From: Candidatus Jettenia caeni
GTDB taxonomy: Bacteria; Planctomycetota; Brocadiia; Brocadiales; Brocadiaceae
Assembly: GCA_000296795.1 (NCBI GenBank)
Contig: BAFH01000003.1
Location: 62,401-126,400 of the forward strand
Direction: 5' to 3'
Length of the DNA stretch: 64,000 nt
Numbering within the stretch: position 1 is the first letter of the stretch; the number at the start of each line of letters is the position of its first letter. The position numbers were made by a program, and so were the translations under genes. The notes beneath the pieces are model-generated. The model searched no databases. It worked only from the letters and a program-made list of their open reading frames with translations, and had not been told where the DNA came from. Positions 31,592 to 36,313 of the stretch are shown one piece after another.

Positions 31592-31984
31592 TTATTTTTC
31601 ATGATACTCTGTGAATCCCTTGCTTATTATTGACTTTGCCATTCTTTTTATCAGGCCTACATCTGAATCGATCACTTTCAGCATAAATTCCTTGGTCTCT
31701 GGTATTCCAACTTCATTAAGGGTATTAAGAATTTCCATTTTTAAAAAGGTATTGTCTGTTTGTTTAAAGAGCTTTATAATCGGCCGTACAGCTTTTGTAC
31801 TTTTAAGTTTACCAAGGATATGAATAGCCCGCCGAACTGTCTCCCGCTCTGGATGCCTGAGTGCATTTACCAACTTTTCCTCAAAATCTTTATTCACATA
31901 TTCTAATATATCGGCACCACAGAAAGGGCATATGAGATCGATTTCTTTGATCTCCTTCCAACACAAAGGACAAAAGAATGTCAT
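31592..31984 (-). CDS. Zinc-ribbon plus HEAT-repeat protein
   Basis: A 130-residue protein. The first 25 residues hold two CxxC pairs (CPLCWKEIKEIDLICPFCG) forming a zinc ribbon. The rest is HEAT-like helices (VNALRHPERETVRRAIHILGKLK, AVRPIIKLFKQTDN, LNTLNEVGIPETKEFMLKV) suited to protein-protein contacts. The function is unknown. A diverged copy of its last 19 codons lies inverted at 36856-36915, so this gene end marks one border of the block up to 36.9 kb. Confidence 0.75.
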   Translation of the reverse strand: MTFFCPLCWKEIKEIDLICPFCGADILEYVNKDFEEKLVNALRHPERETVRRAIHILGKLKSTKAVRPIIKLFKQTDNTFLKMEILNTLNEVGIPETKEFMLKVIDSDVGLIKRMAKSIISKGFTEYHEK

Positions 31985-32131
31985 GATATTTTACCTTAAG
32001 GAAAATACAATCAATTAAATCAAAAGTTTCTATCCAATTTCCTATAAAACATGGTTTCCTTCTAACATTAAACGAACCATCATATTCATTATGATAAGTA
32101 ATGATTTATTACTATTTGTATATCTAAAGAT

Positions 32132-33889
32132 TTATTCACTATCCGTAGAAAATTCTTTTTCCGAGGAAAAAGATAAATAACGCATGTGTGGCCGCAAATA
32201 AAGAAACCAAAACACTGCACCAATCAGAATAACGCCACCGATGAGATTTCCCAAGGTAACGGGAAGAAGGTTGTTGATAAAAAACCCCTTCCAGGTAAGT
32301 TGAGAGAGATCTAGTGTTTTTCCTGCCATTCTTTCTGCTACAGCGACGACATCCGGATGTTTTCTCAAAATTACACCCATTGGGATAAAATACATGTTTG
32401 CAACGCAGTGTTCAAACCCGCTGGCAACGAAACCACCAATGGCAAACAGAGTCGAAATTACCTTATCTGCTACACTCCTACTGCTGTAGCACAACCAGAC
32501 ATTAAGACATACCAATGCGTTGCAAAGTGTACCTCTTGCCAGGGCCTCTTCAAAAGAGAGATTAACTTTTTTATGGGCAATAAGCAGTGCCTTCGCACCT
32601 GTCATACAGTGGAAAAATTCCCACTGGTGTGCCGTATACATCCAATAAACCATCATAAGGCCGCCTATAAAATTACCAACATATACTAAGGTCCAGATCC
32701 TAAACAATTCACGTGTCATAATCTTTTTACTAAGATAACCTACAATATTTAAATTGTTACCCGTAAAAAGTTCAGAGCCAGCAACTTCGACCAGTATAAG
32801 CCCAAGGGAAAATACAATACCAGTAATGAAAGAAGTAAATCCAGCGTGTAAGGCAGAATCGCTTGTCACAAAGGTGGCAAACTGGGCACCCATAGCAACA
32901 TAAATCCCGGCTAAAATGCTCAATACAAGTGTTTGTGTAACCGTTAATCCTGCCCTTATTACTGCCTTATTTTCAACTACAGAGGCTGTCTGTGAAGGTG
33001 AATATGCTACATCTCTATCTATAGTTTGGGTAGACTCTGGAATATTATTTTCTGCCATCTTTCGCTTTCCTTTGCAAGGGGTAAGATTTGAAAGATCTGG
33101 TATTCCACCATGAATCTTTTCGGCGGCAGCCAGTACCGCTCGATTCTCTTTTAGGATAATTCCCATAGGAATAAGCCACATGTTAACAACACAGTGTTCG
33201 AATCCACAGGCCATAAGGCAAGACGTAGGCCAGAGTAATGACAGTATTTTATCGAGATTACTTTTACCACAATAGCACATCCAGACACCGAGACACAGCA
33301 AGGCATTGCCCATCATTCCCCGTGCAAAGACTACACCGAATGGGATGTTTACTTTATCATTGGCCGTAAGGACTATTTTCGCGCCCAGGAGATGATTATT
33401 CATCATCCATTGGCCAGAGGTGTATAGACATAATACAACGGCTAATGCACCAATAAAATTGCCAAGAAATGTAATGACCATATTCCTGGTAAAGGCCTTA
33501 CCGGAAATTTTCCGGGCCATAAAAGACATCGCAACAAGGCAATTTCCCGCAAAAAGTTCGGCACCGGTAATCACAATTAAAACCATTGCCAAAGTAAAGG
33601 CCACACCGCCAACAAGTTGATTTATACCATAATTAGATGTTGCAGTATGTGTTACTAATATAAAGAGCTGAGCACCAAGTGCCATAAAAACACCAGCAAG
33701 AATACTTAATACCAGCGTAGTTAAAGTGTCAAGACTGGATTTTGTTACACCTACCAGACCCACTCTATTAGTCATTTCTACCGACCCATAGGTATCAATT
33801 TCAAGTACTGGTATGATATACTTCTGTTTACCAGTGCCATCCCATGTATCAGGCATACATGGCATCCTTTTTTGATCGTTATTTAACAT
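32132..33889 (-). CDS. Fused tandem formate/nitrite transporter (FNT) protein
   Basis: A 585-residue membrane protein made of two FNT-family units that normally occur as single proteins of about 280 residues forming pentamers for formate, nitrite or related anions. Unit 1 (about 50-250) and unit 2 (about 310-570) each have GAELFAGN/GSELFTGN, an ARG-NALLCL helix, and the pore His in GFEHC (His232 and His494). The sixth helix (LPVTLGNLIGGVILIG) is present only at the end of unit 2. Unit 1 runs instead into a hydrophilic linker (about 250-310). It lies 128 bases downstream of a PII gene. The substrate is not determinable from sequence. Confidence 0.88.
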   Translation of the reverse strand: MLNNDQKRMPCMPDTWDGTGKQKYIIPVLEIDTYGSVEMTNRVGLVGVTKSSLDTLTTLVLSILAGVFMALGAQLFILVTHTATSNYGINQLVGGVAFTLAMVLIVITGAELFAGNCLVAMSFMARKISGKAFTRNMVITFLGNFIGALAVVLCLYTSGQWMMNNHLLGAKIVLTANDKVNIPFGVVFARGMMGNALLCLGVWMCYCGKSNLDKILSLLWPTSCLMACGFEHCVVNMWLIPMGIILKENRAVLAAAEKIHGGIPDLSNLTPCKGKRKMAENNIPESTQTIDRDVAYSPSQTASVVENKAVIRAGLTVTQTLVLSILAGIYVAMGAQFATFVTSDSALHAGFTSFITGIVFSLGLILVEVAGSELFTGNNLNIVGYLSKKIMTRELFRIWTLVYVGNFIGGLMMVYWMYTAHQWEFFHCMTGAKALLIAHKKVNLSFEEALARGTLCNALVCLNVWLCYSSRSVADKVISTLFAIGGFVASGFEHCVANMYFIPMGVILRKHPDVVAVAERMAGKTLDLSQLTWKGFFINNLLPVTLGNLIGGVILIGAVFWFLYLRPHMRYLSFSSEKEFSTDSE

Positions 33890-33910
33890 AATACTATGTC
33901 CCCCCGTAGG

Positions 33911-33972
33911 GGCGAAGCATTTGCAAGGGTATGGGAAAATACACTCATTTCACGATCAGCAAATGCTTCACC
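33911..33972. repeat. Intergenic inverted repeat
   Basis: Arms ggcgaagcatttgc (33911-33924) and gcaaatgcttcacc (33959-33972) match at 13 of 14 positions. It lies between the PII and FNT genes, where it could fold in the mRNA, but it has no T-run. Confidence 0.6.
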
Positions 33973-34017
33973 TCTCCTCTATTCCTTAATTTGTTGAAAA
34001 ATTCACAATCACATTAT

Positions 34018-34356
34018 TTAGATTGCAATCTCTCCTGACTCGCTGGTACGAACTCGATAAGCGTTCTCTATATTGAAAACAAATATCTTCCCATCGCCAA
34101 TACTCCCCGTTTGAGACTCATTGATGATAGCAGTAACAATACTTTCCACATCAGTATCTTTGACAACAATTTCAATCTTGAGCTTTGATAAGAGATCAAT
34201 GCGAAATCTTCTCCCGCGCCACACCTGATCTATCCCTTTTTGATTCCCATGTCCATTTACCTTTGTTACCGTCATCCCTGGATAGCCCAATTCTAATAAA
34301 GCATCCTTCACGGTATCAAACCTTTCAGGCCTAATTATTGCTTCTATCTTTTTCAT
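34018..34356 (-). CDS. PII-family nitrogen regulatory protein
   Basis: A 112-residue GlnB/GlnK-type signal protein that binds ATP/ADP and 2-oxoglutarate and regulates partners through its T-loop. MKKIEAIIRPERF, PGMTVTKVNGHGNQKG and the C-terminal GSIGDGKIFVF are family signatures. The T-loop residue 51, the uridylylated Tyr of enteric PII, is Phe here, and residue 46 is Trp. Uridylylation at 51 is therefore impossible. The ATG at 34356 is chosen for its GGAGGT ribosome site. The gene lies between a dynamin-like GTPase and the FNT fusion, not beside amtB. Confidence 0.93.
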   Translation of the reverse strand: MKKIEAIIRPERFDTVKDALLELGYPGMTVTKVNGHGNQKGIDQVWRGRRFRIDLLSKLKIEIVVKDTDVESIVTAIINESQTGSIGDGKIFVFNIENAYRVRTSESGEIAI

Positions 34357-34442
34357 AAAGACCTCCATTTGTTTAAAATGAATATACGAAAGATACTCTG
34401 AAATTTAGACTTCTCGTAATTGAAAAACTAAGGGTATTGTTT

Positions 34443-36230
34443 CTACATCTGCTTACTCTCTTTATCAATTAAATTACCAGTGTTCCATATATTTTCAAGT
34501 TTCATTCTATTCCCTTCAAGGATTTCTGCTTTACTCGTTAATAAGGCAAGTTCAACACGTATAGACTCACTTCCTGCCTTTCGCCTCTCCTGGCCTCTTT
34601 GAATTGCCTGTTCTATCTGCTTAATGAGGTCACTCCCAAGATCCTTCAATTGTTTAGAGTAATGATGAATAGTTTTACAAATCCTTGCTGATAAATCAGA
34701 GCGTACCCTGCCGCAATTTCGACTCACATCAGAGGATACCCGCTCCATCATCTCATGTAAAACCATCTTTCTGCTTACCGATTTAGGCAGAAAGGTGCGC
34801 AGAATAGACTTGACCTCTTCTTCGGTAGGAGCCGTATATTCCTGGACCATGTAATAAAAACTATTATCCCTGGTTAGTTCAACGGAAAATTCAAATTGAT
34901 TCATGGATACCTCAAAGAGTATCTCTGCAGCCGTCCTAAACTCACACATAATGTCGTTGGAACGTTTTGTAAAACGATGAAAGGTTTCCTGGATACTATT
35001 TGAGATTATGCCCTCGATATCTTTCCTAAACACATCAAATCCCTTAACAATCTCATCCTTGATAATCTTCTGCATCTCATCCCTTAAGATCGTTGGATTT
35101 GTATCTTGATTTTTTTCAAAAAAATCCTGGAGGAAGCGCTTTATCGCCGGTATCTCCTTTTCCTCAAAAACCTTTAACATCTCTTCTACCTTGAAACACA
35201 ACTTGTCCGATTCACCCCTGAGCAGACAGGTAATATCCTCTCTGTCTTGTTTCAGGTTTGCAACAAGCTTATGAAAGGTTTTGATTTTATTTTCCAACTC
35301 TTCCTCGGAAGCCTCTAGTGTCTTTTTCTCAATGGCTATTTGTGACAGTTTCTGTAAAATAATTCGTTTTACCTTGGATACCGCTGTATTTAAGATGATT
35401 TTACCTTTCTCTGAAGCAAGAAAATTACCTAATCTATCCTCCAGGTTCAAAAGTCCACTCTGTGAAAGCTGAATATCGTTTTTCGTCATCTTAGCCTTAA
35501 GTGCTTCCCTTGCAGAGACGGGTAATATTTCATGAACAGTAAATCCCATCTCTTCAAGAACATGCTTGTTGAAGGCAATAATCTCTTCGATTTCCTCAGG
35601 AGACAAATTATCGATCTTATTCAAAACAAAGAATATTTTTTGGATAGAATCTTTAATCGTATCAAGGAGTTCTTTTTCTACCTGTGAGATGGGTACGTCA
35701 GCACTCATGAGGAACAATGCCGCATCCAGATGGTCTAAAAACTCATACGTCGTTTCTGTATTATGCAGAAAGGTAGATCCTACACCGGGCGTATCTACCA
35801 GCAACATACCCTGCTCAAGAAAAGAAGACGGATGCTCGATACGTGCACACCGTACACCACGTATATTTTTCGGGTTTCCTTTTTCTGTTACATAATCAGA
35901 AAGTTCTTCTATGCGAATCTTCTTCTCACTACCGTCTTCCATAAAGACACCGCATCTGACTTCTTCACCAAACTTCAGGATCGTTACAACAGATGTTAGT
36001 GGCACTATGGATGAAGGGAGGATTTCTCTGCCAATCAGACTATTAATAAGTGTCGTCTTACCTCTTTTGAATTGGCCCAGGGTTACCAGGTTAAAACAAT
36101 TGGATACCAACTGTTCCTTGATGGTAAGCAATCGATCATCCGTTTTCCCGAACTCTTCTTTCGTTAGAACCTCAATATCTTCAATAACAGCCAGTATTTC
36201 TGTTTTCTGTTTTATAAATTCCTCTAACAT
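34443..36230 (-). CDS. Dynamin-like GTPase
   Basis: A 595-residue large GTPase. P-loop GQFKRGKTTLINSLIG, a switch I Thr in VPLTSVVT, DTPGVGS (G3) and LNKIDN (G4) define the dynamin-type G domain in residues 45-280. The remainder is predicted helical stalk with coiled coil. Bacterial dynamin-like proteins remodel or protect membranes. The ATG at 36230 overlaps the stop of a tiny upstream ORF and sits about eight bases after GAGAGG, so I prefer it to an ATG three codons earlier. It is the first sizeable gene after the fluoride riboswitch. Confidence 0.88.
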   Translation of the reverse strand: MLEEFIKQKTEILAVIEDIEVLTKEEFGKTDDRLLTIKEQLVSNCFNLVTLGQFKRGKTTLINSLIGREILPSSIVPLTSVVTILKFGEEVRCGVFMEDGSEKKIRIEELSDYVTEKGNPKNIRGVRCARIEHPSSFLEQGMLLVDTPGVGSTFLHNTETTYEFLDHLDAALFLMSADVPISQVEKELLDTIKDSIQKIFFVLNKIDNLSPEEIEEIIAFNKHVLEEMGFTVHEILPVSAREALKAKMTKNDIQLSQSGLLNLEDRLGNFLASEKGKIILNTAVSKVKRIILQKLSQIAIEKKTLEASEEELENKIKTFHKLVANLKQDREDITCLLRGESDKLCFKVEEMLKVFEEKEIPAIKRFLQDFFEKNQDTNPTILRDEMQKIIKDEIVKGFDVFRKDIEGIISNSIQETFHRFTKRSNDIMCEFRTAAEILFEVSMNQFEFSVELTRDNSFYYMVQEYTAPTEEEVKSILRTFLPKSVSRKMVLHEMMERVSSDVSRNCGRVRSDLSARICKTIHHYSKQLKDLGSDLIKQIEQAIQRGQERRKAGSESIRVELALLTSKAEILEGNRMKLENIWNTGNLIDKESKQM

Positions 36231-36313
36231 GGAACACATTCCTCTCTCAAATAACTCATAGCAATATTTTTCACAGCAGCACTTGCCGTTGTTACCCTTC
36301 CTGCAACTCTCAT
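36224..36313 (-). CDS. Possible 29-residue coupled ORF
   Basis: An ORF starting ATGAGAGTTGCAGG gives MRVAGRVTTASAAVKNIAMS followed by YLREECVPC. Its TAG overlaps the GTPase start (ATGTTAG), a classic coupling arrangement. The frame stays open upstream into the previous ORF, so it could also be the end of a larger frame-shifted gene. The evidence is the overlap only. Confidence 0.35.
   Translation of the reverse strand: MRVAGRVTTASAAVKNIAMSYLREECVPC

What the first reader, a model, noticed from the sequence alone, without database searches (positions are those of the whole stretch)
32132..33889. Tandem FNT channel whose first half lacks the sixth membrane helix
FNT proteins have six helices and form homopentamers. 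Here two units are fused. Unit 1 keeps its pore His (232) but runs into a hydrophilic linker where helix 6 should be, while unit 2 (His494) is complete. Five helices in unit 1 would put the linker outside and invert unit 2, unless an extra segment re-enters. Two units per chain also do not divide evenly into a pentamer.
Basis: partly seen in the sequence, partly recalled or inferred. Interest (0 to 1): 0.72.

Follow-up and report, generated by a model that had tools for sequence, protein, structure and literature searches.

The report
Deletion-fused pair of nitrite channel genes
In this anammox bacterium a small deletion appears to have cut off the end of one formate/nitrite channel gene and joined it to its neighbour, so the odd 'tandem channel' is most likely a broken gene stuck to an intact one rather than a new kind of channel.

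Summary
In detail: one 585-aa minus-strand frame (32132-33889) holds two FNT (PF01226) domains; the first lacks helix 6, the second is complete. Relatives explain it. In anammox bacteria these are two neighbouring genes: A, its stop codon, B's ribosome-binding site, then B. From A's Lys-Gly codons before helix 6 to B's start there are 120-132 nt in all 29 relatives measured; here there are 9. A deletion of about 115 nt removed A's helix 6, its C-terminal motif, its stop and the spacer. The junction AAAGG is both A's Lys-Gly codons and, in relatives, part of B's ribosome-binding site. B's own start and a Shine-Dalgarno-like site survive, so B can still be made alone. The A half also lacks the conserved pore threonine, as do 3 of its 4 intact orthologues. 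The A partner is missing beside B in three other genomes, and this genome keeps another intact A-B pair. Best reading: recent truncation of a dispensable paralogue, fused in frame by chance. The A part shows no extra decay, so residual function stays open. The inverted-topology and pentamer paradox is probably not a working design.

The parts
32132..33889 (-). Fused open reading frame, 585 aa, two FNT domains
33068..33856 (-). Remnant of gene A2 (residues 12-274): FNT helices 1-5, pore His232, Ala114 at the pore Thr position; no helix 6, no C-terminal Tyr-Leu-Arg
   Evidence: start at Met12 is inferred from alignment and an upstream AAGGA
33069..33073 (-). Deletion scar AAAGG: A2's Lys273-Gly274 codons joined to B2's ribosome-binding site; about 114-116 nt missing relative to intact orthologous pairs
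32132..33058 (-). Gene B2 (Met278 to stop, 308 aa): complete six-helix FNT with pore Thr376 and His494, own ATG with AAGGA 9 nt upstream
34018..34368 (-). PII nitrogen regulatory protein gene, upstream neighbour
   Evidence: same order in G020
34443..36239 (-). Dynamin-like GTPase gene, conserved neighbour of the pair
31592..31984 (-). Small HEAT-repeat protein gene, conserved downstream neighbour

Best explanation
The locus was an ordinary two-gene FNT operon, A2 then B2, as in other anammox bacteria. A deletion of about 114-116 bp, probably between two AAAGG copies (A2's Lys-Gly codons before helix 6 and B2's ribosome-binding site), removed A2's helix 6, its C-terminal Tyr-Leu-Arg segment, its stop codon and the spacer, and by chance left A2 in frame with B2 (shown by comparison with relatives; the repeat mechanism is inferred). 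The A2 half is most likely a non-conducting remnant, because it lacks the pore Thr, the helix-6 Asn and the C-terminal residues that FocA needs (inferred). B2 keeps its own start and ribosome-binding site and is most likely still made as a normal 308-aa subunit of a homopentamer (inferred). The long fusion, if made, would be topologically frustrated and probably degraded or inert (inferred).
For: A and B are separate adjacent genes in relatives, with one clean gap in the window at the DNA level. Lys-Gly to B start is 120-132 nt in 29 of 29 pairs measured (35 A genes tried), 123-125 nt in the four intact orthologous pairs, 9 nt here. The scar matches B's ribosome-binding region in G020. Only the window locus has two domains in one ORF among 186 FNT ORF records, duplicates included; long frames reported by the order search turned out to be split by stops. 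B2 stands without A2 in G018, G023 and, as far as its short contig shows, G021. The genome holds another intact A-B pair. The pore Thr is lost in 4 of 5 A2 sequences, kept in 31 of 31 other A and 41 of 41 B sequences. FocA needs its Tyr-Leu-Arg end and L279 for transport and pentamer integrity (PMC5572259, abstract) and T91/H209 for transport (PMC9380403, abstract and passages).
Against: The A half shows no sign of decay: 3 unique changes at otherwise invariant columns, against 8 and 7 in two intact A2 genes, and an ordinary A2 branch length of 0.50 (range 0.25-0.79). The frame of the fusion is open, as one third of such deletions would leave it by chance. Independent translation of B is inferred from sequence only. 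The deletion has not been seen in a second isolate.
Confidence: 0.8

Rival explanations
1. The fusion is a working two-unit channel: unit 1 lies in the membrane with five helices plus a re-entrant or uninserted segment, and the chain assembles into a modified oligomer.
For: The A half is not decayed; the frame is open; pore His232 is kept.
Against: Unit 1 lacks the pore Thr, the helix-6 Asn and the C-terminal Tyr-Leu-Arg; no hydrophobic segment replaces helix 6; no relative shares the fusion; FocA C-terminal trimming destabilises the pentamer (PMC5572259).
Confidence: 0.07
2. Sequencing, cloning or assembly artefact: the strain has an intact A2-B2 pair and the ~115-bp deletion exists only in the assembly.
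For: Seen in one assembly only; the A half is not decayed, as expected if the real gene were intact.
Against: A 5-base repeat is too short to collapse in assembly; the flanking sequence is clean on both sides.
Confidence: 0.1
3. The tandem arose by internal duplication of a single gene within this frame.
For: Two homologous domains in one frame.
Against: A and B are old paralogues, about 44% identical, each much closer to its own stand-alone orthologues and separated by stops in the pairs read.
Confidence: 0.02

Closest known systems
Kuenenia stuttgartiensis focA_3/focA_4 (kustd1720/kustd1721)
   Same: Inferred to be the orthologous A2-B2 pair, held here as G011 C1:1596452-1598184: the 303- and 296-aa lengths in print (PMC3482989) fit the A2 and B2 frames counted from their first Met (my count). 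Conserved GTPase and HEAT-protein neighbours.
   Different: Two separate complete genes, 125 nt from Lys-Gly to B start; reported as barely expressed (PMC7438415, passage).
The intact A1-B1 FNT pair of the same genome (C2:600842-602639)
   Same: Same A-then-B order and close spacing, 127 nt from Lys-Gly to B start.
   Different: Both genes complete and separate; A1 keeps the pore Thr.
E. coli / Vibrio FocA (3kcu, 3kly), homopentameric FNT channel
   Same: Unit 2 aligns over its whole length to FocA structures.
   Different: FocA is one six-helix unit per chain; unit 1 here lacks helix 6 and the C-terminal motif.

Membership tests
FNT family (PF01226), unit 2 / gene B2 | Full-length match to the family profile over its cut-off | tested here: met
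   230.5 bits, positions 2-240 of 240
FNT family (PF01226), unit 2 / gene B2 | Six transmembrane helices, conserved pore Thr and His | tested here: met
   Thr376 and His494; six hydrophobic segments including helix 6 at 541-559
FNT family (PF01226), unit 1 / gene A2 remnant | Sequence match to the family profile over its cut-off | tested here: met
   175.6 bits, but only positions 2-208 of 240
FNT family (PF01226), unit 1 / gene A2 remnant | Six transmembrane helices | tested here: not met
   Helix 6 deleted
FNT family (PF01226), unit 1 / gene A2 remnant | Conserved pore Thr (T91 of FocA) | tested here: not met
   Ala114
FNT family (PF01226), unit 1 / gene A2 remnant | Conserved pore His (H209 of FocA) | tested here: met
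   His232
FNT family (PF01226), either unit | Homopentamer and anion transport | not testable with these tools
   No multimer prediction or assay available

The most novel reading that the evidence does not exclude
Anammox A and B FNT proteins form obligate hetero-oligomers. A2, which has mostly lost the pore threonine, serves as a non-conducting partner, and in this strain the deletion made a covalent A-B chain that still assembles, a natural departure from the homopentamer rule of FNT channels.
Probability: 0.05. Interest if true: 0.65.

Novelty: new variant of a known kind. Interest (0 to 1): 0.25.

Why it matters
It resolves an apparent topological paradox as a simple deletion and warns against treating this gene product as a designed tandem channel. 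It points to a better question: why Brocadiales keep adjacent pairs of divergent FNT genes (A and B), and whether the A partner, with an altered pore in the A2 lineage, is a separate channel, a silent subunit of a mixed pentamer, or a gene on its way out.

Tried and rejected
A hidden sixth helix in unit 1: rejected by DNA alignment, hydropathy and, weakly, the model. A frameshift hiding helix 6 in another frame: rejected, since over 110 bases are absent. A fusion conserved in the order or phylum: not found. In the 62-genome order search, the frames of unusual length in G005, G006, G020, G032 and G048 were read directly and had stops between A and B. In the phylum sample of 392 genomes (100 with a match) the printed list of matches is cut; in the printed part I saw no second genome with two FNT matches in one frame. 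Long frames there in G216, G232 and G196 have the FNT part near the end with a late first Met and look like spurious upstream extensions. Decay of the A half: looked for, not found. A codon-model dN/dS test was considered and not run because the nearest orthologues are too divergent for reliable synonymous rates. Alignments A1 and A3 put gene-A sequences onto unit 2 and were not used; alignment A2 was used for the fold. The model is too weak (pLDDT 60.7, pTM 0.44) to judge topology or assembly, so no fold search was made on it. Rows dropped from the trees: sequences under 250 aa and five loci outside Brocadiales.

Full report
What is there. The minus-strand frame 32132-33889 encodes 585 aa. 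Pfam finds two FNT stretches and nothing else. A genome scan places them in one uninterrupted frame, unit 1 covering profile positions 2-208 and unit 2 positions 2-240 of 240. Hydropathy gives five hydrophobic regions for unit 1 and all six for unit 2; the stretch after unit 1's fifth is hydrophilic. An AlphaFold2 model from a 21-row alignment is weak (mean pLDDT 60.7, pTM 0.44) but shows only a short helix (250-260) and a low-confidence loop there, and the long last helix only in unit 2.

Where it is. The genome held for the window has 4 contigs and 4,087,350 bases. I infer Candidatus Jettenia caeni KSU-1, because a paper describes KSU-1 as four large contigs with five FNT proteins, one of them best matching kustd1720 (PMC3482989, passages); this genome has six FNT domains in five frames. 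No tool named the organism.

What relatives show. In relatives the two halves are separate neighbouring genes. Unit 1 is 72-74% identical to the A genes of G012, G013 and G020, and unit 2 is 74-82% identical to the B genes of G012 and G013, depending on the stretch compared. A and B are old paralogues, about 44% identical. Aligning the DNA of eight other A-B pairs over the junction shows one gap in the window that covers A's helix 6, its Tyr-Leu-Arg end, its stop and most of the spacer. From A's Lys-Gly codons to B's start I measured 120-132 nt in 29 pairs (35 A genes tried; 1 had no motif, 5 gave no B start), 123-125 nt in the four intact orthologous pairs G011, G012, G013 and G020, and 9 nt in the window. 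The loss is therefore about 114-116 nt. At the scar the window reads CAAAGGAAAGCGAAAG-ATG; G020 reads CTAAAGGAAAACGAAA-ATG before its B gene, and most relatives have AAAGG at A's Lys-Gly codons too. The simplest event is a deletion between two AAAGG copies. It leaves B with AAGGA nine bases before its own ATG, a normal ribosome-binding distance.

Is the fusion seen elsewhere? Among 186 FNT-containing ORF records in the loci then held (duplicates included) only the window locus, present three times, has two domains in one ORF. In the order search of 62 genomes (48 with a match) five other genomes gave frame lengths of 613-665 aa for both halves; read directly, each has one or two stops between A and B. 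In an even sample of 392 genomes of the phylum, 100 had FNT matches; the printed part of the list, which is cut, shows no second case. Paper searches listed nothing that by title, start of abstract or the passages I read describes such a fusion.

The A2 partner looks dispensable. The order dynamin-like GTPase, PII, A2, B2, HEAT protein is the same in G020. In G018 and G023 B2 is present without A2: PII lies directly before B2 in G023, and an unrelated short frame lies between them in G018. In G021 the contig ends 91 nt before B2, and what is left resembles the G018 arrangement. tblastn of unit 1 finds only B2-level matches (41-44%) in the three stretches examined. The two sister species have neither this pair nor a close copy of the dynamin-like gene. 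The genome has another, intact A-B pair on contig C2. In Kuenenia the pair that I infer to be orthologous is reported as barely expressed (PMC7438415, passage). At the position of FocA's pore Thr91, four of the five A2 sequences have Ala, Ala, Asn or Met (G020 keeps Thr), while 31 of 31 other A and 41 of 41 B sequences have Thr. T91 and H209 are described as crucial for translocation in FocA (PMC9380403, abstract and passages). Helix 6 also carries the conserved pore Asn262 (my count on the alignment). Trimming FocA's C terminus to remove R280 and then L279 impairs transport, then stability and pentamer formation (PMC5572259, abstract). Unit 1 lacks the Thr, the Asn and this C-terminal end; it keeps the His.

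Evidence the other way. If A2 had been dead for long it should have decayed. It has not: it has 3 unique changes at otherwise invariant columns, fewer than the intact A2 of G011 (8) and G012 (7), though more than most of the 36 rows. Its branch length is ordinary for the fast-evolving A2 group (0.50, against 0.25-0.79 for the others; B2 of the same genome 0.19). The deletion must be recent, or the fused half still does something. I cannot separate these.

How it most likely works. B2 is translated from its own start as a normal FNT subunit. The A2 half is a non-conducting remnant. The long chain, if made, would need either an inverted unit 2 or an uninserted segment, and is likely cleared. The deletion is shown by comparison; the fate of the products is inferred. 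An artefact is possible but unlikely, since a 5-base repeat would not collapse in assembly.

Verdict. The more interesting lead is the conserved pairing of A and B FNT genes in anammox bacteria (FNT genes with consecutive locus numbers are listed in print, PMC3655542 and PMC7438415, passages), whose reason is unknown.

Noticed in passing
33908-33975: A palindromic element with 17-nt inverted arms (88% complementary) sits between the PII gene and the fused frame; partial copies at 75-100% identity occur at four other places on the same contig. It looks like a small mobile repeat inserted in the leader.
   Followed up: partly
L150, L148, L151 (A2 orthologues), unit 1 residue 114: The A2 lineage has lost the nearly universal FNT pore threonine (Ala, Ala, Asn, Met in 4 of 5 sequences), including in intact genes.
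   Followed up: partly
31592-36239: A module of dynamin-like GTPase, PII, FNT pair and HEAT protein is kept in order in G020 and in part in G011, G012, G013, G018 and G023, but the two sister species lack a close copy of the GTPase and the FNT pair.
   Followed up: partly
L190 1563-3332 (-): In G033 the second of two adjacent FNT genes carries a ~300-aa extension that looks to me like extra membrane helices followed by a trypsin-like protease domain (reading by eye, no family search).
   Followed up: no
Alignment of 41 B sequences: Two B sequences show Gln instead of His in the pore His column.
   Followed up: no
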